NCBI RefSeq assembly: GCF_029633915.1
Contig: NZ_CP091092.1
Span: forward strand, 1,364,001 to 1,428,000
From: Methanomicrobium antiquum
GTDB lineage: Archaea > Halobacteriota > Methanomicrobia > Methanomicrobiales > Methanomicrobiaceae
Length of the DNA: 64,000 bases
Direction of reading: 5' to 3'
Shown: piece by piece, positions 34,239 through 58,106 of the stretch
How the letters are laid out: each line of letters begins with the position of its first letter
How positions within the stretch are numbered: position 1 is the first letter of the stretch
The notes under the pieces: generated by a model
The model's database searches: none
What the model was told of the DNA's origin: nothing
The model's input: only the letters and a program-made list of their open reading frames with translations
Program-made: the position numbers and the translations under genes

Positions 34239-35264
34239 TCACTCAATAATGCCTGTTTTGCAATAATAATGAATCTTATGAACAGCGATTCCTAAAACTG
34301 TGAATACAGATGTGATAAATACCCACCATCCTATAAGAAAAATTATGCAGACTGTGGTCATTTCAAAATGATGCACTGAGAAGAAATGATAATCATAACC
34401 AACAAGAGCAGGTGTTAAACTAATAAAAAACTCAGGTAGTGAGATTAAAAATAATATTACGCCAAAAATTAAAAAGCATCCAAAAATTTCAATTAATGCT
34501 TTTCTAAATACTGAAAAAGAGCTTAGCAATGCAGAAATTATGTTTTTATTTTCTAATACTATCCCCGGAATAGTGAAAAGTGTCATTAAAAACAAAGCTG
34601 AGCTGATAATAATTTTAATGAAGATATGATTTTGTGCTGAAAGCACTATATCCGGAATATAATATATGAATGGAATGTATAGAACAGAGGCAAACCAGGG
34701 ATATATATGTGTGTATAAATGACTATGAGTTAAAACTGTATACAGTGCAGTTCCTGCAAGTGCGATTATAAATGACCATCCAAAAACCTGATAGAAGTGA
34801 CTTTTAAGCACTGATAAACTTAATTTTAGATCAACGTAGCCTTTTGTTTTTGCTAATGATAAATTAATCAACAAGTCTGCAAGAAGAAGATTTATGGCTG
34901 AAAACGCTAGCAATTCAATTGAAAACGTAAACAAAAGCCCTTGTAGGTAACCTAAAGTCCAGTACGTATGGCTGTCTGCTAAACTCATAAGATTAATTTC
35001 CAAAACAAACATAGCAAGAATTATAAGACCTGCTATGAATGAGAACCAGAAAAGCTTTTTGTTTTGGAACAGTGTTTGAATGCTTTTTTTGGCAATTATA
35101 ACACCGTTTTTTATTCTGAAATTCTTTTTTTCACCGCCTCCGGAATTAATTTCAGTTGAATCATAGCAATCGCCTATGCAATATACCGGTGTCTTTATGA
35201 AATTTTGTTCCATCGGACACCATCCAAGACTCTTTTGATTTTTATCAGATGCATTTTCAGTCAT
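34239..35264 (-). CDS. Multi-pass membrane protein paired with an HTH regulator
   Basis: A 341-residue protein with a cytoplasmic-looking N-terminus of about 60 residues that holds two cysteines (WCPMEQ, YCIGDCYDS) and then seven or eight membrane segments. Its start overlaps the stop of the HTH gene by 4 bp, so the two form one operon. I do not recognise a family; the middle resembles generic archaeal DUF membrane proteins. It may be a sensor or transporter controlled by its partner. Confidence 0.78.
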   Translation of the reverse strand: MTENASDKNQKSLGWCPMEQNFIKTPVYCIGDCYDSTEINSGGGEKKNFRIKNGVIIAKKSIQTLFQNKKLFWFSFIAGLIILAMFVLEINLMSLADSHTYWTLGYLQGLLFTFSIELLAFSAINLLLADLLINLSLAKTKGYVDLKLSLSVLKSHFYQVFGWSFIIALAGTALYTVLTHSHLYTHIYPWFASVLYIPFIYYIPDIVLSAQNHIFIKIIISSALFLMTLFTIPGIVLENKNIISALLSSFSVFRKALIEIFGCFLIFGVILFLISLPEFFISLTPALVGYDYHFFSVHHFEMTTVCIIFLIGWWVFITSVFTVLGIAVHKIHYYCKTGIIE

Positions 35265-35707
35265 AGACTTTCCCTCACTTTTCTAAACAGTTCGTCCGCC
35301 ATTTCTGTGGGATCATTTGTATTTTCAATTTTTATTCCAAGCTCTTCAGCATAGTCCCATAAAAGTTCTGTACATTCCTTATACTTCTCACAATTTTCAC
35401 AGACACCTTCGTGTTCAAACCAGACCTGTACGCCCTGCTTTTTTGAGACAAAAATGATTGCAGTGACTTTTAAGGGAACTGAACGCCCCAATAAGATTCC
35501 TTTTTCAAAATTGACGATTTCTACTGCAATGCTATTTGCATTCGCCATGTCCAAAAGAATCTTTTCAATTTTTTTAGTCATTGATAAAAGAGCATGAGAA
35601 ACAGCCTGTCTTGAAATATCAAAGTTTTTAGCAATTTCTATGTTTTGCATACCGCTTCTTCGCATAGTCCAGAATGCAAATTGTTTTTCATCAGTTGGCA
35701 GGAACAT
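35261..35707 (-). CDS. HTH transcriptional regulator with cysteine cluster
   Basis: A 148-residue protein. An HTH like that of Tfx/sigma-region-4 proteins spans residues 8-45, with NIEIAKNFDISRQAVSHAL as turn and recognition helix. The C-terminal half includes CENCEKYKEC near residue 103, a CxxC-x5-C group that could bind a metal or cluster. It is translated just before the membrane protein gene with a 4-bp overlap and lies next to a gap of about 190 bp that holds its probable promoter. Confidence 0.8.
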   Translation of the reverse strand: MFLPTDEKQFAFWTMRRSGMQNIEIAKNFDISRQAVSHALLSMTKKIEKILLDMANANSIAVEIVNFEKGILLGRSVPLKVTAIIFVSKKQGVQVWFEHEGVCENCEKYKECTELLWDYAEELGIKIENTNDPTEMADELFRKVRESL

Positions 35708-35899
35708 ATGTCAATATGTGAATGTTGACAAAATATACTTTGTGGATATAAATATTTTTACATAGAATGATAATTTTCATGAAAGTTTTAAATGAAACAT
35801 ATATAATGATGAAAATTAAACATCAATGTACACATATGTCAAAAAAAATATATTCACGGATATTCAGAAACAGAGTCGGGGAGACTTTCTATACAGGCT

Positions 35900-36643
35900 A
35901 TGACTTTAAATGAAATTCTTTATGGCGATACTATATTTAAAGAAGGCTCGCTTGTCCTTGAAGCCGGATGCGGAGTCGGCGCCCAGACAAAAGCAATTGC
36001 AAAAAATAGTCCCGGTGCGAGGATAATTTCTGTTGACATTTCACTAAAATCACTCAGCGCCGCCAGAAAAAAAGCAGCTGATGAGACTAATTTTCCTGCT
36101 GAATATTTAAACTGCGATATATTCAGCCTGCCGTTTTTAAAGAATTCCTTTGACTATATTTTCGTATGCTTTGTATTAGAGCACTTAAAAAATCCAAGGG
36201 ATGCGCTTTTGGAGCTTTTAAAATTCTTAAAGCCCGGCGGGGAGATAATTGTAATTGAAGGCGATCACGGCTCTGCCTTTTTTTATCCTGATAGTTCTGA
36301 TGCTAAAAGAAACATCGAATGCCTTGTCTCTCTTCAGGCAAAGGCCGGCGGCGATGCCTTAATTGGAAGAAGACTTTATCCTCTTTTAAAAGATGCAGAT
36401 TTTTCTGATGTATGTGTTTTTCCAAGAATAATTTATGCAGACAGCTCAAACCCTGCACTTGTCAGAGGTTTTACAAAAAAGACATTCACAGCAATGGTAG
36501 AGGGGGTGGGTTTTGATGTAATATCATCAGGGATAATGACAGAAAAAGAATGGGAAAACGGAATTCGTGCCCTTTACAGGACTTGTGAAGAGGACGGAAC
36601 ATTTTGCTATACATTTTTCAAAGCGACAGGAAAAAAAATCTGA
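35900..36643 (+). CDS. SAM-dependent methyltransferase with possible N-terminal frameshift
   Basis: A class I methyltransferase with SAM-binding motif VLEAGCGVGAQTKAIA, acidic motif ISVDIS and FDYIFVCFVLEHLKNPRDAL. The frame given starts at an internal ATG (MTLNEIL). Upstream in the same frame, without any start codon, the sequence reads YIHGYSETESGRLSIQA, which matches the usual N-terminus of this family. An ATG at 35836 enters another frame and meets eight A's (35841-35848); removing one A would fuse MSKK to this upstream sequence. The original protein was therefore probably about 269 residues. Substrate unknown. Confidence 0.82.
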   Translation: MTLNEILYGDTIFKEGSLVLEAGCGVGAQTKAIAKNSPGARIISVDISLKSLSAARKKAADETNFPAEYLNCDIFSLPFLKNSFDYIFVCFVLEHLKNPRDALLELLKFLKPGGEIIVIEGDHGSAFFYPDSSDAKRNIECLVSLQAKAGGDALIGRRLYPLLKDADFSDVCVFPRIIYADSSNPALVRGFTKKTFTAMVEGVGFDVISSGIMTEKEWENGIRALYRTCEEDGTFCYTFFKATGKKI

Positions 36644-36718
36644 TTTTTTTTAGATATCGTAAAAATATTAAATTTCAGAATCATATTATTAGAAAATAAT
36701 AACTAAAAGAAGATATTT

Positions 36719-37636: not shown

Positions 37637-39787
37637 TTAGTTTTTCTTACAAAAGTGCTTTAAAATATACTCACCTGTAAACTGGAAATAAACCTCCCTT
37701 GTTTCGGAGTCTGTTCTTTTATAAAAATGGGCTTTCTGTCTTTCATTATTGTAAAATGCAATAGCATAAAATGGAATATCTGATTTTTTAACATGAATCC
37801 GGCATACAGTATCCCCTTTGACTTCTTCAAAAGATATATTCAGATATTTACTAAAATGAGTGATAATATCCTTTGGATATATCATTTTATCAATGATATC
37901 ATCAATGATCTTTCTTTTATAGCCATCCAAATTTTTATCCTGAAGTTTTGAATATTCATTTGTAATACTGTGAGTTTTACAGATATCGCCTTCTTCCTTC
38001 AATTCTTCAACGCCTATTAAAAGAGTTCCTCCGTTTGTATTCAGAAAAGCAACAATTGTTTTTGCAATAGAAAACATGCTGTTGTTCTTTTCAAATATAA
38101 AATTAGGATCATCATCATAGACAAATCCAGGATATCCATCATATTTTGCACTGCGAAATACTCCCTTCTTAAATTCAATTGTTTCACATTCGCCAATATT
38201 AATGAGATTTTCCACTGTAACATCCAAAGAATCATCTGTATCTTTCACCTCTATTTTTGGAGAAAGAACAATGTTATCAATAATGCCGGTTTTCATTTCA
38301 AGCAGTTCGGAAGCTTTCCGAGAGAGTATATGATCTTTGATAAATTTTCCAAAATCTCTTAATGCTTTGTCACCTTCTGCAAGAGAGTGATAACAATGAA
38401 TAACATCAATGTTTGTATTTTCCTTCAGATATTCCCAGTCAATAGAGAAATGGTAACTTATTACATCACAGTAAGTAAAGTCAAAAATACGTTTAATGTT
38501 GTTTTTCCGAATATATTCAGCCATAACCTCAGTTATAAGCTTAGATTTTGTCCAAAGGTAATATGCACTGTTTTTCTGACCGAACTGGCAGGCATAATTC
38601 TGAATAGATTCTTTTGGTAGTAAAAGACCATAACATGCAGATAATATCATAAAATGATGATTTGATGATAAAATCCCTGATTTGCCTTCTTCTCCAAGTT
38701 CCTTATAAAATTGTCCGTCAAATCTCTTTATTGCAGGAAGATAATTTGCAGGAGTCTGACCACCAAAATCTCTGCCTTTTACAAGGTAATTATTATATTT
38801 TTCTATTTCCTGCTCGCATTTGTACCAGTGGATTTCATTATTTGATAGATTTAATAAAATTTCATCTCTTGTTTTAATAAATTTTGAACGGATTGCTTCA
38901 TCATCAATTGAATTAATTAATGCATTTTTCATGTCATATTCTGATGAGCCGCCGGATAATTTATGAAAAGAATCAATAAAAAGAATGAGGACGGGACTCT
39001 TGGTTGGCTTTTTTTCGTTAGAAGCTAAATTGTCCTGATCACCTTCAAAATTATCTTCCGGTTTATCAAGGGGTTCCAGAGAAATTTTATCGGAACCTGC
39101 TGCTGTCCACACTGCTATTTCGACCATCCGGGGAGTCCAGTCAAAATTAGTAAGAGTGGTCAATTTTTTTGCACACTTTCTGCTAAAATCAGTCCATTGC
39201 AAATAGGTATTCCAATTTGCCTCACGATTATAGAAAGATCCAGATATACCTCCATCTTCTGTTGTAAGAAAGTTTGTCGATTCTTTATATCCAAATTTGT
39301 CTTTATTATCATGCCACCATTTTGCAATTCTTCTGTCAGCAATAGGATATTCAGCAGGGTCATAAAAAGAAAGGAATGTTATTGGTAATGCATACCCGGA
39401 AGGCATGTTACATAGATTACAAAAATTATTAAAATTTTCAAACGTTGGTTCTTTACTTAGCGATGAAATCGATTCTGCGAATTTCTCCCAAACAATAGCC
39501 TTATCCTGCCTTATATATGATAAGTGCCTGATAAAGTCTGATGTTTTCGTGTTAACATCACGTTTAGAATTCAGTTTCCAGAACAATATTTCTCCGGCAA
39601 CAATTCTCTCATCAAAATTATTTTCAGGGTTATTAATCGCGTTCTGAAACTTTTTTTCCAACAAATTTAGATTTTTAAGATCAATTTTTGAATTGAAAAA
39701 ATCAGGGTAAGAGTTTTTATCTCTGTACTTTGTAAGGTCTACAACCCAGTTAAAAGAATTATATGCATCTATCCATTTGTTGTACAT
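37637..39787 (-). CDS. Multidomain protein with AlbA_2 (schlafen-type) C-terminus
   Basis: A 716-residue protein next to the restriction locus. Residues 1-235 are helical, with MPSGYALPITFLSFYDPAEY then PIADRRIAKWW, reminiscent of a DNA-glycosylase-like helical core. Residues 340-490 contain NHHFMILSACYGLLLPKESI, resembling the YaaA/DUF6884 fold. Residues 520-716 are an AlbA_2/Divergent-AAA domain with ETIEFKKGVF, FLNTNGGTLLIGVEE and a GDTVCRIHVKKS strand. AlbA_2 proteins occur in Schlafen and several defence systems. The combination, position and AT-rich code suggest a defence effector; the target is unknown. It is divergent from hsdM, 256 bp away. Confidence 0.75.
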   Translation of the reverse strand: MYNKWIDAYNSFNWVVDLTKYRDKNSYPDFFNSKIDLKNLNLLEKKFQNAINNPENNFDERIVAGEILFWKLNSKRDVNTKTSDFIRHLSYIRQDKAIVWEKFAESISSLSKEPTFENFNNFCNLCNMPSGYALPITFLSFYDPAEYPIADRRIAKWWHDNKDKFGYKESTNFLTTEDGGISGSFYNREANWNTYLQWTDFSRKCAKKLTTLTNFDWTPRMVEIAVWTAAGSDKISLEPLDKPEDNFEGDQDNLASNEKKPTKSPVLILFIDSFHKLSGGSSEYDMKNALINSIDDEAIRSKFIKTRDEILLNLSNNEIHWYKCEQEIEKYNNYLVKGRDFGGQTPANYLPAIKRFDGQFYKELGEEGKSGILSSNHHFMILSACYGLLLPKESIQNYACQFGQKNSAYYLWTKSKLITEVMAEYIRKNNIKRIFDFTYCDVISYHFSIDWEYLKENTNIDVIHCYHSLAEGDKALRDFGKFIKDHILSRKASELLEMKTGIIDNIVLSPKIEVKDTDDSLDVTVENLINIGECETIEFKKGVFRSAKYDGYPGFVYDDDPNFIFEKNNSMFSIAKTIVAFLNTNGGTLLIGVEELKEEGDICKTHSITNEYSKLQDKNLDGYKRKIIDDIIDKMIYPKDIITHFSKYLNISFEEVKGDTVCRIHVKKSDIPFYAIAFYNNERQKAHFYKRTDSETREVYFQFTGEYILKHFCKKN

Positions 39788-40043: not shown

Positions 40044-41765
40044 ATGAGTAATCTAAGTGCTAACATAAGTGAAAAAGCCAATCTTATCTGGTCAATTGCG
40101 GACAAATTAACCGGTACATACAAACCACATGAATATGGAGAAGTAATTCTTCCCCTGACTGTAATAAGGCGTTTTGACTGTGTACTTGCGGACACAAAAG
40201 ACGCTGTTCTTGCAAAGAACGAGACAATGAAAGCGGTTGCTTTGAAAGATGAATTTCTGAAAAAAGCATCAGGCTACTCATTTTATAATACAAGCAAATT
40301 TACTTTTCAAAAATTATTAGATGATCCGGACAACATTGAGGCAAACTTCAAAAATTATCTCAACGGCTTTTCTCCCAATGTGCAGGAAATAATTGAGAAG
40401 TTCAAATTTGATGCACACATTACAACGATGGCAAAAAAGGGCATTTTGTATAATGTTTTAAAGGAATATACAACATCAAAAGGATACCTCCACCCCTCAC
40501 ACATCTCAAACCTTGAGATGGGCTATATCTTTGAAGAAATTATCCGGCGTTTTTCAGAGTCTCATAATGAGGATGCCGGACAGCACTACACTCCCCGTGA
40601 AGTCATTGAACTGATGGTAAACATTCTGTTTACTGATGATAATGATATTTTGTCCGGCAAAAACATCACAAAGACACTTTATGATCCGGCCTGCGGTACA
40701 GGCGGTATGCTTTCGGTTGCCACCGAATACCTGCACAGATTAAATTCGGGTGCAAAACTTATCGGTTTTGGTCAGGAATTAAATGATCATACGTTTGCTA
40801 TCTGCAAGGCCGATCTTTTAATTAAAGGTGATAGTGCAGACCAGATCAAAAACGGAAACACTCTTTCCGATGATCAGTGCGCCGATATGCAGTTTGACTA
40901 TATCCTCTCAAATCCTCCTTTTGGCAGGGAATGGAAAAATGAAAAAAATGCGGTTGAAAAAGAGGCCAAACTGGGTTTTGCCGGTCGCTTCGGCCCGGGG
41001 CTTCCTGCTATCGGTGACAGTCAGATGCTCTTTTTACTGACAGCAATCTCGAAGATGAAGGATTCAGGATCAAGGGTTGCAATAATTCACAACGGATCAC
41101 CGCTCTTCTCAGGCGATGCCGGTTCAGGCCCGTCTGAGATCAGAAAATATATTCTGGAACATGACCTTCTTGATGCGATAATTGCTCTTCCAAATGACTT
41201 ATTTTATAATACAGGAATTGCGACTTACGTCTGGATTTTGTCAAACAAGAAGCCTGCGAAAAGAAAAGGCAAAGTTCAGCTCATAAACGCAAACCAGATG
41301 TTTGTCAAACGCAGGAAATCGCTTGGAAACAAGAGAAACGATATCTCGCAGGATGCTATTTCAGAGATAACAAAGATTTACGGCGAATTTAAAGAGAATG
41401 ACGTCTGTAAAATCTTTAATAATGATGATTTCGGCTACCACAAAATAACTGTTGAAAGACCCCTTCTTGATGAGAACAAAAAGCCTGTTCTTTCAAAGGG
41501 AAAACCAAAGCCTGATTCATCATTGCGTGACACAGAAAACATACCCTTAACAGAGGACATTTCAGAGTATTTTAAGCGTGAAGTCCTCCCATTTGCACCG
41601 GATGCATGGATTGACGAGAAGAAAACAAAAGTCGGTTATGAAATTTCCTTCACCCGCTATTTCTACAAATACACTGCACCAAGACCAAGCAGTGAAATAA
41701 TGAAAGAAATCTTAGAGCTTGAATGCGAGCTTGAAGGAAGTCTTGCGGAGATTTTTCAGAAATGA
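40044..41765 (+). CDS. hsdM: Type I restriction-modification system, methyltransferase subunit
   Basis: A 573-residue N6-adenine methyltransferase. The N-terminal HsdM helical domain (LIWSIADKLTGTYKPHEYGEVILPL) is followed by SAM motif LYDPACGTGGMLSVA near residue 212 and the catalytic motif ILSNPPF near 288. The GIATYVWILSNKK block near 395 is typical of HsdM. It overlaps the DUF1016 gene by 4 bp. With HsdS it methylates host DNA; with HsdR the complex restricts invaders. Confidence 0.96.
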   Translation: MSNLSANISEKANLIWSIADKLTGTYKPHEYGEVILPLTVIRRFDCVLADTKDAVLAKNETMKAVALKDEFLKKASGYSFYNTSKFTFQKLLDDPDNIEANFKNYLNGFSPNVQEIIEKFKFDAHITTMAKKGILYNVLKEYTTSKGYLHPSHISNLEMGYIFEEIIRRFSESHNEDAGQHYTPREVIELMVNILFTDDNDILSGKNITKTLYDPACGTGGMLSVATEYLHRLNSGAKLIGFGQELNDHTFAICKADLLIKGDSADQIKNGNTLSDDQCADMQFDYILSNPPFGREWKNEKNAVEKEAKLGFAGRFGPGLPAIGDSQMLFLLTAISKMKDSGSRVAIIHNGSPLFSGDAGSGPSEIRKYILEHDLLDAIIALPNDLFYNTGIATYVWILSNKKPAKRKGKVQLINANQMFVKRRKSLGNKRNDISQDAISEITKIYGEFKENDVCKIFNNDDFGYHKITVERPLLDENKKPVLSKGKPKPDSSLRDTENIPLTEDISEYFKREVLPFAPDAWIDEKKTKVGYEISFTRYFYKYTAPRPSSEIMKEILELECELEGSLAEIFQK

Positions 41766-42808
41766 ATGAGGATAATCCGGCACTTCCTTCGGATGAGGTT
41801 TACTTAAATATCCGCAGGAGTGTTATTACTGCTCAGAGGCAGGTTTACGCTGCTGTAAATTTTGCAATGGTGCAGACATACTGGGAGATTGGTGAGCAGA
41901 TTTACTATGCATGCGGGGAGAATTTTCGTGCGGAATACGGGAAGAATCTTTTAAAATTTTTGTCTGAAAAACTCACAGAGGAGTTTGGGAATAATTATTC
42001 TGATCGAAATCTCCGTTATATGAGGCAGTTTTATGCAACATTTCCAATCCGGAACGCACTGCGTTCCGAATTAAGCTGGACGCATTACCGGCTTTTAATG
42101 CGGATTTCGGATGAAAACGCCCGTGATTTCTATATGGATGAATGTGCTAAATCAGACTGGAGTTCAAGACAGCTTGAGCGGCAGATTAATTCATTTTTCT
42201 ATGAGCGGCTTCTTGCAAGCAGGGATAAGGAGGATGTCATAAAAGAGGCTGAATCAAACGGGTTGAAAACGGAGTATGAGCGTATTATAAAAGACCCTTA
42301 TGTTCTGGAGTTTTTAAACCTTGAAGCGAACCCGAAATTCTATGAAAAGGATTTGGAAGAGGCTCTGATTACAAACCTGCAAAAGTTTCTGCTTGAACTT
42401 GGACGCGGATTTTCGTTTGTATCTCGGCAGAAGAGAATTTCCTTTGACGGACGCCACTTCTATATCGATCTTGTCTTTTACAACTACATCCTGAAGTGCT
42501 TTGTTTTAATTGACCTGAAGCTTGGCGATCTTACTCATCAGGACTTGGGTCAGATGCAGATGTATGTCAACTACTACACCCGCGAGATGAGAACGGAGGG
42601 CGACAACCCTCCTGTGGGAGTTGTTCTGTGTGCCGACAAAAGCGATGCTGTTGTAAAATACACACTTCCGGAGGACAATTCACAGATCTTTGCATCAAAA
42701 TACATGCTTTACATGCCGACAGAAGAAGAATTTAAGCGGGAGTTAAACCTCGATAGCTTCCGGAAGATGAGCAGAGACAATCCAAAAGATGAGGGTGATG
42801 ACGCATGA
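41762..42808 (+). CDS. DUF1016 (YhcG-type) PD-(D/E)XK nuclease
   Basis: A 348-residue protein with an N-terminal DUF1016 helical domain (VNFAMVQTYWEIGEQI, ELSWTHYRLLMRI) and a C-terminal nuclease fold, FYIDLVFYN then CFVLIDLKLG and GQMQMYVNYY. The DLK in place of ExK is normal for this family. It is wedged between hsdM and hsdS with 4-bp ATGA overlaps on both sides, so it is expressed with them. Known DUF1016 proteins cluster with type I systems; whether it cuts DNA itself or helps the complex is unknown. Confidence 0.92.
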   Translation: MNEDNPALPSDEVYLNIRRSVITAQRQVYAAVNFAMVQTYWEIGEQIYYACGENFRAEYGKNLLKFLSEKLTEEFGNNYSDRNLRYMRQFYATFPIRNALRSELSWTHYRLLMRISDENARDFYMDECAKSDWSSRQLERQINSFFYERLLASRDKEDVIKEAESNGLKTEYERIIKDPYVLEFLNLEANPKFYEKDLEEALITNLQKFLLELGRGFSFVSRQKRISFDGRHFYIDLVFYNYILKCFVLIDLKLGDLTHQDLGQMQMYVNYYTREMRTEGDNPPVGVVLCADKSDAVVKYTLPEDNSQIFASKYMLYMPTEEEFKRELNLDSFRKMSRDNPKDEGDDA

Positions 42809-43989
42809 GGGCAATGAAGGATTCCGGGATTGAGTGGATTGGCGAGATTCCGGTGGGGTGGGAAATAAGACGGCTTAGATTTTTATGCCAAATAATTACA
42901 GGAGATAAAGATACAATAAACAAAAAAGAGGATGGATTATATCCATTCTATGTTCGTTCTCCAAATATTGAAAGGATTGATTCTTACACTTTTGACGGAG
43001 AAGCAATACTGATGGCAGGTGATGGTGTTGGTGCTGGAAAAGTGTTTCACTATGTAAATGGCAAATTTGACTATCATCAACGAGTGTATAATCTTCATTT
43101 TTTTAAAGATATTTCAGGAAAATATCTATATTATTACTTAAAAGAAAATTTTTGGAAAAAAATTGAAGAGAGTAATGCAAAATCTACTGTTGACTCCGTT
43201 AGACTTCCAATGCTTCTTGATTTTCCTGTTGCTTTAGGTGAGCTTCCAGAACAAACCCGCATCGCCTCTTTCCTTGACAATAAATGCACCGCAATTGACG
43301 CTTCAATCGAAAAACAGCGGGCTTCAATTGATAAGCTGAAGGAATACCGGCAGGTAGTGATAACAAATGCTGTGACAAAGGGTCTGAATCCGGATGTTCC
43401 AATGAAGGATTCCGGGGTTGAGTGGATTGGGGAAATTCCGGAAGGGTGGGATGTTGTAAAGTTAAAATGGCTTGCAAGGATGAAAAGTGGTGAAAGTATT
43501 ACCTCTAATATCATTGATAATGATAGTACCTATCCAGTATATGGAGGAAATGGATTAAGAGGATATGCTAAATCTTTTACACACAATGGCTCTTATATCT
43601 TGATTGGAAGACAAGGAGCACTTTGTGGAAATGTTCACATTGTAAAAGGAAATTTTTGGGCATCTGAACATGCAATTGTAACATATGAGTTAATTACATT
43701 GGATCAAAAATGGTTGTTCTACATTCTTTCTGCTATGAATTTGAATCAATATTCAACTTCAGCAGCCCAGCCGGGTCTTGCAGTTGAACAAATTCAAAGG
43801 TTGTCTACTTTATTACCTCCGATTTCAGAACAACATGAAATCGCTGCCTATCTTGATCAAAAATGCACCGCAATTGATGAAGCAGTATCCAAAAAAGAAA
43901 CTCTCATCAAAAAACTTGAGGAGTATAAGAAATCCTTAATCTATGAGGCTGTGACCGGTAAGATTGAAATTCCGGAATTATCAGCCTGA
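42805..43989 (+). CDS. hsdS: Type I restriction-modification system, specificity subunit
   Basis: A 394-residue HsdS with two target-recognition domains. Each half begins with MKDSG(I/V)EWIGEIP and ends with a coiled helix (NKCTAIDASIEKQ, QKCTAIDEAVSKK). The second domain has PVYGGNGLRGYA and ILIGRQGALCGNV, the common recognition-domain pattern. The DNA of the two repeats is about 90% identical over 50 bases (42814 and 43402), which would allow domain exchange by recombination. The two half-sites recognised cannot be predicted by eye. Confidence 0.95.
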   Translation: MRAMKDSGIEWIGEIPVGWEIRRLRFLCQIITGDKDTINKKEDGLYPFYVRSPNIERIDSYTFDGEAILMAGDGVGAGKVFHYVNGKFDYHQRVYNLHFFKDISGKYLYYYLKENFWKKIEESNAKSTVDSVRLPMLLDFPVALGELPEQTRIASFLDNKCTAIDASIEKQRASIDKLKEYRQVVITNAVTKGLNPDVPMKDSGVEWIGEIPEGWDVVKLKWLARMKSGESITSNIIDNDSTYPVYGGNGLRGYAKSFTHNGSYILIGRQGALCGNVHIVKGNFWASEHAIVTYELITLDQKWLFYILSAMNLNQYSTSAAQPGLAVEQIQRLSTLLPPISEQHEIAAYLDQKCTAIDEAVSKKETLIKKLEEYKKSLIYEAVTGKIEIPELSA

Positions 43990-44039
43990 ATTTTTAATTG
44001 GTTTTCCTTTTTTTCATTTATTTTAAATTGATTCATGCA

Positions 44040-44150
44040 ACCCATGCGCAAGGTTCGCTTCGCAAAGCTTCGCGAACCACGCCCTGCCCTCAGGGCTTTG
44101 CGCCATCACGACAGCCTGCTTCGAGAATACCCTGCGGGTATTCTCAGCAG
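44040..44150. ncRNA. GC-rich three-way-junction structure, candidate RNA or mobile remnant
   Basis: GCGCAA (44046-44051) pairs with TTGCGC (44098-44103) and encloses two stems: GGTTCGC (44052-44058)/GCGAACC (44072-44078) and GCCCTG (44081-44086)/CAGGGC (44091-44096). A separate 10-bp hairpin GAGAATACCC/GGGTATTCTC follows at 44123-44145. The stretch is far richer in G and C than its surroundings. It lies in the 600-bp gap between hsdS and hsdR. The strand, if transcribed, is not known. Confidence 0.45.
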
Positions 44151-44246
44151 CCATATTTTGAAACATCAGATTTGAATGATATTTAAACGGAGCTTTAAAA
44201 AAATGTCAGGAGCATTGGGAATGCTCGTCCATTCCCAATGCGGGGT

Positions 44247-44315
44247 ATCGTTATAAAAGGGGGAGGGTCTAAGGGAGGGGGAAATTCGTTCCCCCTCCCT
44301 TTTACTAAAAACGAT
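44247..44315. repeat. GC-rich hairpin element, copy 2
   Basis: AAGGGAGGGGG (44271-44281) pairs with CCCCCTCCCTT (44291-44301), extended by AA/TT inside, and an outer ATCGTT (44247-44252) pairs with AACGAT (44310-44315). The core and the trailing CTAAAAACGAT parallel the copy at 23387-23425. Confidence 0.75.
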
Positions 44316-44371
44316 CATGAAACAAAGGTTTCATGCACCGTTTAATGTAAATCACAACGTGATTTTCATGG
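44316..44371 (-). repeat. Two-hairpin intergenic element with paired substitutions
   Basis: Arm 2 is CATGAAAC-AAAG-GTTTCATG (44316-44335) and arm 1 (44344-44370) has stem AAATCAC/GTGATTT with loop AAC. Relative to AAGTTAC/GTAACTT elsewhere, three stem positions differ and each keeps its partner. It lies upstream of hsdR. Confidence 0.8.
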
Positions 44372-44591
44372 TAAATTAAAGATAAAAGTTTGGAATTTTC
44401 TTAATTGATCTCTAAAATAATTGTGAAAACCATCAGGATATTTAAAAATATTTTAATAAACCACACCTTCAGGTGAAATGAATACGTGACAAATTGTCAC
44501 GGTTTTAATCTTCCATTATATGCAAAATAACGCAATAAATTATTATTCCCTTATACTCAATATTACATTAAGGGTAAAAAAGGTGAAATAA

Positions 44592-47500
44592 ATGGCATCC
44601 GCAGAATATACAGAAAAACAGTTTGAAAATGATATTGAATTTTCACTTTGCACAAATGGCGGTTATGTCAAAGGAAATCCGGAAAAGTTTGACAGGGTTC
44701 TGGGGCTTGACACGGAAACCCTCCTCACATTCATCAAAACAACACAGCCGAAGGAATGGAAAAAATACAACAGCATATACGGTGATGACAGCGAAAAGAC
44801 GTTTATTGAAAGATTCACAAGGGAAGTTGCAAGAACAAACCTCCTTCGCGTACTCCGGCAGGGAATAAACGACCGGGGATGCAGGTTTAAGGTAATCTAC
44901 TGGAAACCGGAAACAGCAATCAATGAGGAATCAAGAGAACACTATGATCAGAATATCCTCAACTGCACAAGACAGCTTCACTACTCCCCCACAAATGAAA
45001 ACAGTCTGGATATTGTTCTGTTTGCAAACGGAATCCCGGTTGTATCAATGGAACTCAAAAACCAGTTCACCGGCCAGAATGTAGCAAACGCAATCGGACA
45101 GTACAAATTTGACAGAAACTCCCGCGATCCAATCTTTGAATTCAAAAAGAGAGTCATTGTTCACTTTGCAGTTGATCTCTACAATGTCTATATGACAACC
45201 CGCCTCAACGGAGGGCAGACAAAATTCCTCCCGTTCAATCAGGGATCAAACGGAGCAGGAGAGGTAGGCGGAGCAGGAAACCCCCTTTATTACAACACAT
45301 ATCAGACCGCTTATCTCTGGGAAAAAGTTCTCACAAAAGACAGCCTTCTTGAAATCCTTCACAAATACCTTCATATTAAAACCGAAACTCTGACAGACTT
45401 AAACGGAAAAACAACCGAAACAAAAGAGACCCTTATCTTTCCAAGATATCATCAGCTCGATGTCGTAACAAAACTCCTCTCAGATGTCAGGGAAAACGGT
45501 GCAGGCAAAAATTATCTCATACAGCACAGCGCCGGAAGCGGAAAATCTAACTCTATCGCATGGCTTGCACACCGGCTCTCGGGACTGCATGACAGAACAG
45601 ATAATAAAATTTTCAAATCGACAATAGTTGTAACTGACAGGAAAATTCTTGACAGTCAGCTTCAGGACACAATCTATCAGTTTGATCATGTTGAAGGCGT
45701 CGTTGTAAAAATCGACAAAGACTCAAAACAGCTTCGCGATGCAATCAACTCCGGCGCAGGAATAATCATCACAACACTTCAGAAGTTCCCGGTAATCTAC
45801 AAAGAAATAAATTCAGACAACAAAAATTTTGCAGTCATTGTTGATGAGGCTCATTCGTCACAGACCGGAGAAGCGGCAAAAAAGCTCAAAACAGCGCTTG
45901 CCAACATAGAAGAAGTCCTCGATGAGTACGCAAAAGCCGAAGGCGAAGAGGAAGACAAACGCCCGGACGAAGAGGATAAGTTAATAGCCGAAATTGCCGC
46001 ACAGGGGCAGCACAAAAACCTTTCATTTTTTGCTTTCACCGCAACACCAAAAGACAAAACACTTCAGATGTTCGGAGTAAAACAGCCGGACGGCAAATAC
46101 AAGGCATTTCACATCTATTCAATGCGGCAGGCCATTGATGAAGGATTCATCTTAGACGTTTTGAAAAATTACATGACATACAGCATGTATTACAAAATTA
46201 TCAAAAACATACCTGATGATCCGGAACTTGACACAGCCGCAGGAATTAAAGCAATACGGCGCTATGAAAGCCTTCATCCTCATAACCTTGCACAAAAGAC
46301 CGCTATCATGGTTGAACACTTCAGGAGTCAGACAAAAAACCAGATTGGCGGAAAAGCAAAGGCGATGGTCGTTACAGCCTCACGCCTTCATGCAGTAAGA
46401 TACTGCTTTGAGTTTAAGCGATACATCAAAGACAAAGGATACACAGGCCTTGATGTTCTGGTTGCCTTCTCAGGCGAAATAGACGATGAGGGAATGTCAT
46501 GGACTGAGGAAAAGATAAACAAAACAAAATCAGGAGAGCACATTAAGGAAAAACAGCTTCCAAAAGAGTTCCATGATAATTTCAATATCTTAATTGTGGC
46601 AGAAAAGTATCAGACCGGATTTGATGAGCCGTATCTTCACACAATGTTTGTTGATAAAAAATTAAGCGGAGTTAAGGCAGTCCAGACCCTCTCACGAATA
46701 AACAGGATTGCCGAAGGCAAAGACAGCACATTTGTTCTTGACTTTGTGAACACTGCCGAAGATATTCAAAAAGCATTTCAGCAATACTACGAAGCAACAA
46801 TTCTCGCTGAGGAAACAAACCCCAATGTTCTCTATGATCTCAAATACACTCTTGATGACTTTGGGATATACAGAGAGTCAGAGATAAATTCATTCGCAGA
46901 AATCTTCTTTGCAAACACTCAGGAAAGAGATATGGGAAAACTCTCTGCAACCCTCCGCCCTGCAATGGACAGATTCGCTGCAAAACCTCTTGAAGAGCGT
47001 GAAACATTCAAAACAACACTTTCCCGCTTCATCCGCATATATGGGTTTATAACTCAGGTATGCAGGATGTTTGACGAAGAATTGCATAAGTTCAGTGCAT
47101 ATGCAAAATTCTTATCAACAGTTCTTCCAAAAGGAGAGAAAGTAACAGTCGATTTGGACGATAAAATTCTTCTTCAATATTACAGACTTGAAAAGTGCTT
47201 TGGCGGATCTATTGTCATGGATAAACATGATGAATCAGGGATTGATCCAATCAAAGGGGAAGCCGGAGTCAGAAAAGAGAAAAAGGACACTCTCACAAAA
47301 CTTCTTGACAGAATAAATGAGAAATTCGGTACAAACTTTACCGAGATGGATAAGGTTCTCCTCCAGATTGAAAATGATATTCGTGCCGAAGAAAGCCTTG
47401 TAAACTTTGCACAGAACAATGATGAGCGTGTTTTCCGCCCGGTCTTTGAAAAAGTGTTCAAAGATATGGCGATTCAAAGGTATGAGCAGAATGATGAATT

Positions 47501-47597
47501 CTTTATTCGTATGTTCAACGATTCTGCATTTATGCAATACACAATGGACTTAATGCGGTCAGATATATACAGGAAAATTAAGACTGCACAGGTTTGA
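44592..47597 (+). CDS. hsdR: Type I restriction-modification system, restriction/translocase subunit
   Basis: A 1001-residue HsdR. The N-terminal nuclease has SLDIVLFANGIPVVSMELKN near residue 138 (PD-(D/E)XK: Asp, then Glu-x-Lys). The motor has Walker A SAGSGKS near 313, DEAHSSQTG near 419, FTATPKD motif III and TGFDEPYLHTMFVDK/QTLSRINR in the second RecA lobe. The C-terminal helical part binds HsdM. The gene has its own upstream region with a GGTGA-type ribosome site, unlike the tightly coupled hsdM-DUF1016-hsdS. It appears intact. Confidence 0.96.
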   Translation: MASAEYTEKQFENDIEFSLCTNGGYVKGNPEKFDRVLGLDTETLLTFIKTTQPKEWKKYNSIYGDDSEKTFIERFTREVARTNLLRVLRQGINDRGCRFKVIYWKPETAINEESREHYDQNILNCTRQLHYSPTNENSLDIVLFANGIPVVSMELKNQFTGQNVANAIGQYKFDRNSRDPIFEFKKRVIVHFAVDLYNVYMTTRLNGGQTKFLPFNQGSNGAGEVGGAGNPLYYNTYQTAYLWEKVLTKDSLLEILHKYLHIKTETLTDLNGKTTETKETLIFPRYHQLDVVTKLLSDVRENGAGKNYLIQHSAGSGKSNSIAWLAHRLSGLHDRTDNKIFKSTIVVTDRKILDSQLQDTIYQFDHVEGVVVKIDKDSKQLRDAINSGAGIIITTLQKFPVIYKEINSDNKNFAVIVDEAHSSQTGEAAKKLKTALANIEEVLDEYAKAEGEEEDKRPDEEDKLIAEIAAQGQHKNLSFFAFTATPKDKTLQMFGVKQPDGKYKAFHIYSMRQAIDEGFILDVLKNYMTYSMYYKIIKNIPDDPELDTAAGIKAIRRYESLHPHNLAQKTAIMVEHFRSQTKNQIGGKAKAMVVTASRLHAVRYCFEFKRYIKDKGYTGLDVLVAFSGEIDDEGMSWTEEKINKTKSGEHIKEKQLPKEFHDNFNILIVAEKYQTGFDEPYLHTMFVDKKLSGVKAVQTLSRINRIAEGKDSTFVLDFVNTAEDIQKAFQQYYEATILAEETNPNVLYDLKYTLDDFGIYRESEINSFAEIFFANTQERDMGKLSATLRPAMDRFAAKPLEERETFKTTLSRFIRIYGFITQVCRMFDEELHKFSAYAKFLSTVLPKGEKVTVDLDDKILLQYYRLEKCFGGSIVMDKHDESGIDPIKGEAGVRKEKKDTLTKLLDRINEKFGTNFTEMDKVLLQIENDIRAEESLVNFAQNNDERVFRPVFEKVFKDMAIQRYEQNDEFFIRMFNDSAFMQYTMDLMRSDIYRKIKTAQV

Positions 47598-57235: not shown

Positions 57236-57592
57236 ATGAATTCAAAAGAAGCTATTCAAAATTATCTTTTTGCAGAACGCGCCAAAACAAATCTTATTAC
57301 CCTTTCTCAATCTGCATCTGTTCTCTATGAATTAAAAGGAGCAGAAAAATCAGGTGCGAAAAAGATGCTTAAGATTTTTGCAGGTGCAATCGGACAGGAT
57401 CTCGGTTTGGCATACAACACAACAAAAAACCAGAGTTTTAAGGATGCGAACGAAATTTTAGAACAGGCTGAAGGTATGCTCGAAAACGAAGATTTAGAAG
57501 ATGCATCGCTTGCAATAAGCAGTGCTATTACAAAGGCAACTACTCCTGCACAGCAGGCATGGCAGGTATTATCCAAAAATGAACTCATCTGA
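57236..57592 (+). CDS. Small helical protein, function unknown
   Basis: A 118-residue, mostly helical protein (MNSKEAIQNYLFAERAKTNL onward) with a GAGAIGQDLG-like segment near residue 58. No motif gives a function. The stop lies 14 bp inside the nitroreductase gene's start region, so both are likely translated from one transcript. A GAAGGCAGG ribosome site precedes it. Confidence 0.75.
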   Translation: MNSKEAIQNYLFAERAKTNLITLSQSASVLYELKGAEKSGAKKMLKIFAGAIGQDLGLAYNTTKNQSFKDANEILEQAEGMLENEDLEDASLAISSAITKATTPAQQAWQVLSKNELI

Positions 57593-58106
57593 TTTTTTAG
57601 ACTTTATAAGCACCAGATCCTCTGTGAGGACTTACAAAAGTGAGCCTGTTTCAGATGAAGAGATAAATTTCATAATTAGTTGCGCATCAAAAGCGCCAAG
57701 TGCAGGAAACAGGGAATCCTGGGATGTGATTATAGTTACAGATGAATCAGTCAAAGAAATTCTCTGTGATTGTGCATTTAATCAGGAACACCTTATAAAG
57801 GCACCCGTAATTCTTGCTGTTTGTGCAAATTACATACGCTCAATGTCCCAGTACGGCGAAAGAGGTATTCTTTATGCCGTAGAAGACGCAACAATCGCTG
57901 CAACATATATGATGCTTGCGGCACATTCACTAAGACTTCAGACATGCTGGACAGGAGCTTTTGATGATGAAGCAGTTTCAGAGACACTCGGTCTTTTGCA
58001 ACATGCAAGACCAATTGCCCTTTTGGCTGTAGGACATGGCACTCTTCCGGAATACCGGACAGAAAGAATGCCAGTTAGTGAACATATTCATGAAGAAACC
58101 TGGTAA
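57579..58106 (+). CDS. Nitroreductase family protein
   Basis: A 175-residue FMN-dependent nitroreductase-fold protein. The start is the ATG at 57579 (MNSSDFLDFISTRSSVRTYK), overlapping the previous gene by 14 bp. RSSVRTYKSEPVSDEEI and APSAGNRESWDVIIV are the FMN and phosphate contacts; AVGHGTLPEYR is the C-terminal dimer part. It may reduce flavins, quinones or nitro compounds. Confidence 0.88.
   Translation: MNSSDFLDFISTRSSVRTYKSEPVSDEEINFIISCASKAPSAGNRESWDVIIVTDESVKEILCDCAFNQEHLIKAPVILAVCANYIRSMSQYGERGILYAVEDATIAATYMMLAAHSLRLQTCWTGAFDDEAVSETLGLLQHARPIALLAVGHGTLPEYRTERMPVSEHIHEETW

What the first reader, a model, noticed from the sequence alone, without database searches (positions are those of the whole stretch)
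35836..35902. Methyltransferase N-terminus out of frame at an A8 run
Upstream of the internal ATG at 35900 the same frame encodes YIHGYSETESGRLSIQA, the expected family N-terminus, but has no start codon. An ATG at 35836 followed by TCA and a run of eight A's enters it only after a one-base shift in that run. Either the run is miscounted, the gene is a recent pseudogene at its 5' end, or polymerase/ribosome slippage on A8 makes the full protein (a phase switch is possible).
Basis: partly seen in the sequence, partly recalled or inferred. Interest (0 to 1): 0.6.

Follow-up and report, generated by a model that had tools for sequence, protein, structure and literature searches.

The report
Methyltransferase gene broken at A8 run
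A methane-producing archaeon carries an ordinary methyltransferase gene whose start is out of frame with its body because of a run of eight A's, and because close relatives carry the same gene broken in other places, this is most likely a dispensable gene recently switched off by mutation rather than a special control device.

Summary
ATG 35836-35838 is followed by TCA and an A8 run (35841-35848). The frame after the run is one base out of register with the frame encoding the conserved N-terminus (YIHGYSETESGRLSIQA) and the 248-codon body of a class I methyltransferase. Of 125 full-length homologues, 121 start 1-8 codons before that N-terminus (108 at 4-5 codons), none was seen to start at internal ATG 35900, and the start/promoter block is conserved in the nearest orthologues, so ATG 35836 is the real start. 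A miscounted run is unlikely but not excluded: 60 A/T runs of at least 8 lie inside intact long ORFs in 464 kb of this closed genome, and no frame break was found at a run of 7 or more. The gene is also broken, at other sites and by other means, in several relatives of the same family (in-frame deletions, other frameshifts, stops, remnants). The A-tract is not conserved. Best reading: recent, recurrent inactivation of a dispensable gene. A reversible phase switch or slippage rescue on A8 is not excluded but has no positive evidence. A common kind of event; interest low to moderate, mainly for the recurrent loss.

The parts
35800..35807 (+). TATA-box-like TATATAAT, 36 nt upstream of ATG 35836
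   Evidence: same 36-nt spacing in orthologues G013 and G004 (counted from the sequences); promoter role inferred
35826..35828 (+). ATG 10 nt upstream of the true start, in the third frame; its 25-codon frame ends at TGA 35901-35903, overlapping ATG 35900
   Evidence: an ATG or GTG sits at -10 in the nearest orthologues too
35836..35838 (+). ancestral start codon of the methyltransferase
   Evidence: aligned with the start codons of G001, G004, G007, G013, G019
35841..35848 (+). A8 run that puts the start codon out of frame with the gene body
   Evidence: not conserved in orthologues
35849..35899 (+). conserved N-terminal segment YIHGYSETESGRLSIQA, out of frame with ATG 35836
   Evidence: also within the region matched by PDB 3MGG
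35900..36643 (+). 247-aa ORF: body of a class I SAM-dependent methyltransferase, no further stop or frameshift
36644..36651 (+). T8 run directly after the stop codon, possible archaeal terminator
   Evidence: role inferred

Best explanation
This is a real inactivating indel in a poly(A) tract just after the true start codon of a solitary, dispensable SAM-dependent methyltransferase. DNA polymerase slipped on the run of A's in the lysine-rich N-terminal tail. Ribosomes starting at ATG 35836 now stop after 25 codons, and the 248-codon body is left behind a non-conserved internal ATG with no obvious ribosome-binding site, so little or no normal enzyme should be made. The lesion is one of several independent losses of this gene in the family. 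Shown: the frame error, the identity of the true start, and independent lesions in relatives. Inferred: that the run length is right in the cell, that the shortened protein is inactive, and that the loss is not reversed.
For: True start established by 125 homologues and by the conserved 5' block. The same gene is broken differently in relatives: G001 and G007 large in-frame deletions, G004 frameshift in a G-run, G010 frameshift plus TAG, G018 two frameshifts, G017 a decayed remnant. Leaving out the window, 6 of 15 assessable carriers in its family are broken against about 4 of 109 elsewhere (Fisher p about 0.0002, hand classification). The A-tract is not conserved, and the lesion types differ. 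Three private changes at near-invariant columns in the window copy (H103Y, T134I, G184D), none in intact G013. The deleted G007 copy has a longer branch than intact G013. A8 runs elsewhere in the assembly do not break genes.
Against: No raw reads, so the run length is not independently checked. The body is otherwise free of lesions and the promoter-to-start spacing is conserved, which would also fit a gene still used now and then. Relative to G004 the window copy is not faster than control genes. Some bypass of an 8A frameshift is possible: such indels were tolerated in a laboratory methyltransferase (PMC3812077).
Confidence: 0.65

Rival explanations
1. Reversible phase variation: slipped-strand mispairing at the A-tract switches the methyltransferase on and off in the population, and the assembly caught an off state.
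For: An 8-base A-tract 3 nt after the start codon is a typical place for such a switch; 5' poly(A) tracts are proposed as general inactivation sites in prokaryotes, archaea included (PMC2831843). Body and promoter are intact.
Against: The tract is not conserved in any near orthologue. Relatives carry irreversible lesions (deletions) in the same gene. Nineteen other ORFs in 464 kb have A>=7 near their start and are in frame, so such tracts are common in this A+T-rich genome.
Confidence: 0.09
2. Transcriptional or ribosomal slippage on A8 makes enough full-length protein from the frameshifted gene.
For: Frameshifts in an 8A repeat of M.HaeIII were bypassed (PMC3812077); 8 A's may slip productively in some bacteria (PMC1088944). 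From ATG 35826 a -1 slip on A_AAA_AAT would also enter the right frame (read).
Against: Nine A's is the usual length at which slippage is evident (PMC1088944). RNA downstream folds no better than shuffles, z=0.45. No conserved slippery site in orthologues.
Confidence: 0.12
3. The run is miscounted in the assembly and the gene is intact.
For: Homopolymer runs are the classic error site; no reads are available here.
Against: 60 runs of 8-9 A or T lie inside long ORFs that stay open across them in 464 kb, and none of 10 candidate frame switches has a run of 7 or more nearby. The gene is often broken in relatives. The closed assembly is 99.7% complete.
Confidence: 0.09
4. The shortened protein from internal ATG 35900 is a working 247-aa enzyme.
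For: ORF 35900-36643 is intact, and the stop TGA 35901-35903 of the frame from ATG 35826 overlaps ATG 35900, which could allow reinitiation.
Against: No homologue among 125 was seen to start there; Met18 is not shared with relatives; the missing segment holds six near-invariant residues; no obvious ribosome-binding site at a suitable distance.
Confidence: 0.05

Closest known systems
Class I SAM-dependent methyltransferase of the PDB 3MGG type (Pfam Methyltransf_11, PF08241)
   Same: Full-length match to 3MGG over 263 residues, E=1.3e-86; PF08241 E=1.3e-23; N-terminal YxHGY...RL..Q segment
   Different: The segment is out of frame with the start codon; substrate not identified in anything read here
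Poly(A) tracts at the 5' end of genes as inactivation sites (Orsi et al. 2010, PMC2831843; Listeria inlA)
   Same: Frameshift in an A-run near the 5' end that abolishes the full protein
   Different: Here only one genome is known, reversibility is untested, and relatives lose the gene by other lesions
Frameshift pseudogene clusters of the GeneTack study (PMC3711429)
   Same: Non-conserved frameshift sites within a few genera of one family
   Different: Mixed with large in-frame deletions and remnants
Bypass of frameshifts in homonucleotide repeats of M.HaeIII (PMC3812077)
   Same: Frame error in an 8A run within a methyltransferase gene
   Different: A DNA methyltransferase under laboratory drift, where bypass was measured; here bypass is not shown

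Membership tests
3MGG-type class I SAM methyltransferase | Methyltransferase domain with motif I (LEAGCGxGAQT) | tested here: met
   PF08241 E=1.3e-23; 3MGG E=1.3e-86
3MGG-type class I SAM methyltransferase | In-frame start 1-8 codons before the conserved YxHGY segment | tested here: not met
   121 of 125 homologues have it, the window does not
3MGG-type class I SAM methyltransferase | Methyltransferase activity | not testable with these tools
   needs expression and assay
Frameshift pseudogene | Reading frame disrupted relative to intact orthologues | tested here: met
Frameshift pseudogene | Frameshift site not conserved among relatives | tested here: met
   relatives are intact or broken elsewhere
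Frameshift pseudogene | Relaxed purifying selection | tested here: inconclusive
   three private changes at near-invariant columns, but no acceleration against controls relative to G004
Phase-variable (contingency) locus | Run length varies within a population | not testable with these tools
   no reads and one genome per species
Phase-variable (contingency) locus | Repeat tract conserved at the same place in orthologues | tested here: not met
   no such tract in G001, G004, G007, G013; A6 at most in G019
Programmed frameshifting | Conserved slippery site with stimulatory RNA structure | tested here: not met
   site not conserved; fold z=0.45

The most novel reading that the evidence does not exclude
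The A8 tract is a live switch in an archaeon: the methyltransferase is turned on and off by replication slippage, or kept at a low level by polymerase or ribosome slippage, and the repeated breakage of the gene in relatives reflects selection that alternately favours and disfavours the enzyme.
Probability: 0.17. Interest if true: 0.5.

Novelty: new member of a known kind. Interest (0 to 1): 0.25.

Why it matters
As a single case it matters mainly for annotation: the gene should be recorded as frameshifted with its true start at 35836, not as an intact 247-aa protein. The broader point is that a widespread, well-conserved methyltransferase with a solved structure, but no function that I found, is lost repeatedly in one methanogen family while staying intact in most carriers of related families. 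That suggests a niche-dependent role and gives a natural series of intact and broken species in which to look for its substrate. If the A8 run proved reversible it would be a phase-variable gene in a methanogen; a search for such reports in the held library showed none on point among the titles listed.

Tried and rejected
Start at the internal ATG: rejected as ancestral, no homologue was seen to start there. Noncanonical start codon in the right frame (ATA, ATT, GTA, ATC): possible on paper, not supported. Programmed frameshifting: no conserved site, RNA fold no better than shuffles. A second copy in the genome compensating the loss: none, the next best match has E=4e-9. Conserved neighbours as a clue to function: none found among 846 flanking ORFs. 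Frame-break scan with proteins of G001 and G007 samples: only 18 good orthologues, too few for an error rate; replaced by a coding-potential scan. Acceleration of the window copy against control genes: not shown. G174, which seemed to lack the same N-terminus, is a contig end. G130 has an A8 at the same position but in frame (L137). The sigma-70 promoter scan does not apply to archaea.

Full report
WHAT IS THERE. The sequence at 35836-35902 is as described: ATG 35836, TCA, and a run of exactly eight A's at 35841-35848. The frame from that ATG ends after 25 codons at TGA 35911-35913. The frame of ORF 35900-36643 is open back to 35813 and encodes YIHGYSETESGRLSIQA directly after the run, without any ATG, GTG or TTG. 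The ORF is a class I SAM-dependent methyltransferase (PF08241, E=1.3e-23); read from 35849 it matches PDB 3MGG over 263 residues (E=1.3e-86). The window lies at 1,364,001-1,428,000 of a single-contig genome of 2,438,126 bp, 99.7% complete, and encodes methanogenesis marker proteins, so the host is a methanogen. No tool named its genus; the family label Methanomicrobiaceae is my inference from the gene content and the relatives, not a test.

THE TRUE START. In 126 full-length homologues (window included) the nearest in-frame start upstream of the conserved Tyr lies at 4-5 codons in 108 and within 8 codons in 121. Five lack one within 8 codons: the window, three that have a start at 10-11 codons, and L020. 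The nearest orthologues (G001, G004, G007, G013, G019) have their start codon at the position of ATG 35836, and in the window, G013 and G004 a TATAT box lies 36 nt upstream of it. The Met at 35900 is not shared by the relatives, most of which have Ala or Ser there. So ATG 35836 is the ancestral start and the internal ATG is accidental.

IS THE RUN LENGTH REAL? No reads are available. In 464 kb of the same assembly, 46 A-runs and 14 T-runs of 8-9 bases (coding strand) lie inside long ORFs that stay open across them, and of 10 candidate frame switches none has a run of 7 or more nearby. That scan would miss lesions near starts and in weakly coding DNA, so it bounds the error rate only loosely. 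A separate scan for ATGs stranded behind runs found this locus as the only one with a convincing coding segment.

RELATIVES ARE BROKEN TOO. A class-wide search found the gene in 137 of 232 genomes. In the window's family, G001 lacks residues 44-130 in frame, and G007 lacks about 81 residues in frame, the deletion joining two TCGAGGG repeats. G004 has a one-base loss in a G-run, G010 a one-base gain in a T-run plus a TAG, G018 two frameshifts, and G017 only a decayed C-terminal part. G027 has several frameshifts but is a poor assembly, and G019 is split between contig ends. Intact copies: G012, G013, G015, G021, G022, G023, G024, G025. Leaving out the window, G027 and G019, and G009, whose match is too distant, 6 of 14 carriers are broken by this count (the Fisher test was run with 6 of 15, which is slightly conservative) against about 4 of 109 assessable carriers in other families (G116, G122, G123, G142); p is about 0.0002. 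The classification was made by hand, and lesions close to the start, like the one in the window, would escape the survey, so the counts are approximate.

SELECTION. The window copy has three private changes at columns near-invariant in 124 other homologues (H103Y, T134I, G184D); intact G013 has none and frameshifted G004 has two. In a tree the deleted G007 copy has a branch of 0.047 against 0.007 for intact G013. For this gene the distance from the window copy to G004 in the same genus (0.52) is as large as that to G013 in another genus (0.47), whereas for Mmp3, LarC and AspS the same ratio is about 0.4-0.6. This fits relaxed constraint in the genus, but the window copy alone is not faster than the controls relative to G004, and horizontal transfer could also distort the ratio.

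MECHANISM. Most likely a slipped-strand indel in an A-run within the lysine-rich tail. Homologues often have AAA AAA there (A6 in several; A8 in frame in L137), which makes the site indel-prone without being an evolved switch. Poly(A) tracts at 5' ends as sites of gene inactivation are described (PMC2831843). Frameshifts in the 8A repeat of a DNA methyltransferase gene were well tolerated through bypass in the laboratory (PMC3812077), and 8 A's may slip productively in some bacteria although nine is the usual length (PMC1088944), so some leakage is conceivable. From ATG 35826 a -1 slip on A_AAA_AAT would also give the right frame, but no RNA structure supports programmed frameshifting. By the criteria of the GeneTack study (PMC3711429), non-conserved frameshift sites in few genera mark pseudogenes rather than recoding.

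VERDICT. Observation confirmed. Best explanation: a recent loss-of-function indel in a dispensable gene that is lost repeatedly in this family (about two in three). Phase switching and slippage together are about one in five, a miscount about one in eleven, an internal start about one in twenty. Ordinary in kind; the recurrent loss is the part worth keeping.

Noticed in passing
35704-35711 and 35832-35839: The palindrome ACATATGT overlaps the start codon of both the methyltransferase and the divergent gene 35261-35707 (weak Tfx-like regulator match); the 15 nt before the two starts are 80% alike, which could be a shared operator.
   Followed up: partly
35709-35730: Imperfect inverted repeat TGTCAATAT / ATGTTGACA in front of the divergent regulator-like gene.
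   Followed up: no
40044-47597: Type I restriction-modification genes (HsdM 40044-41765, HsdS-like 42805-43989, HsdR-like 44592-47597) with a YhcG/DUF1016 nuclease gene at 41762-42808 inserted between them.
   Followed up: no
37637-39787: 716-aa protein with weak YaaA-like and C-terminal Schlafen/AlbA_2 domains between the methyltransferase region and the restriction genes.
   Followed up: no
57236-58106: A 118-aa ORF without a Pfam match overlaps the start of a 194-aa nitroreductase-family ORF in another frame; overlap or frameshift not resolved.
   Followed up: no
L161 (G122:C2): A third large internal deletion of the same methyltransferase gene, in another family, joining about residue 105 to about residue 252.
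   Followed up: partly
L137 (G130:C149): A distant orthologue has an A8 run at the same position, directly before the conserved Tyr, but in frame (MTEKKY).
   Followed up: partly
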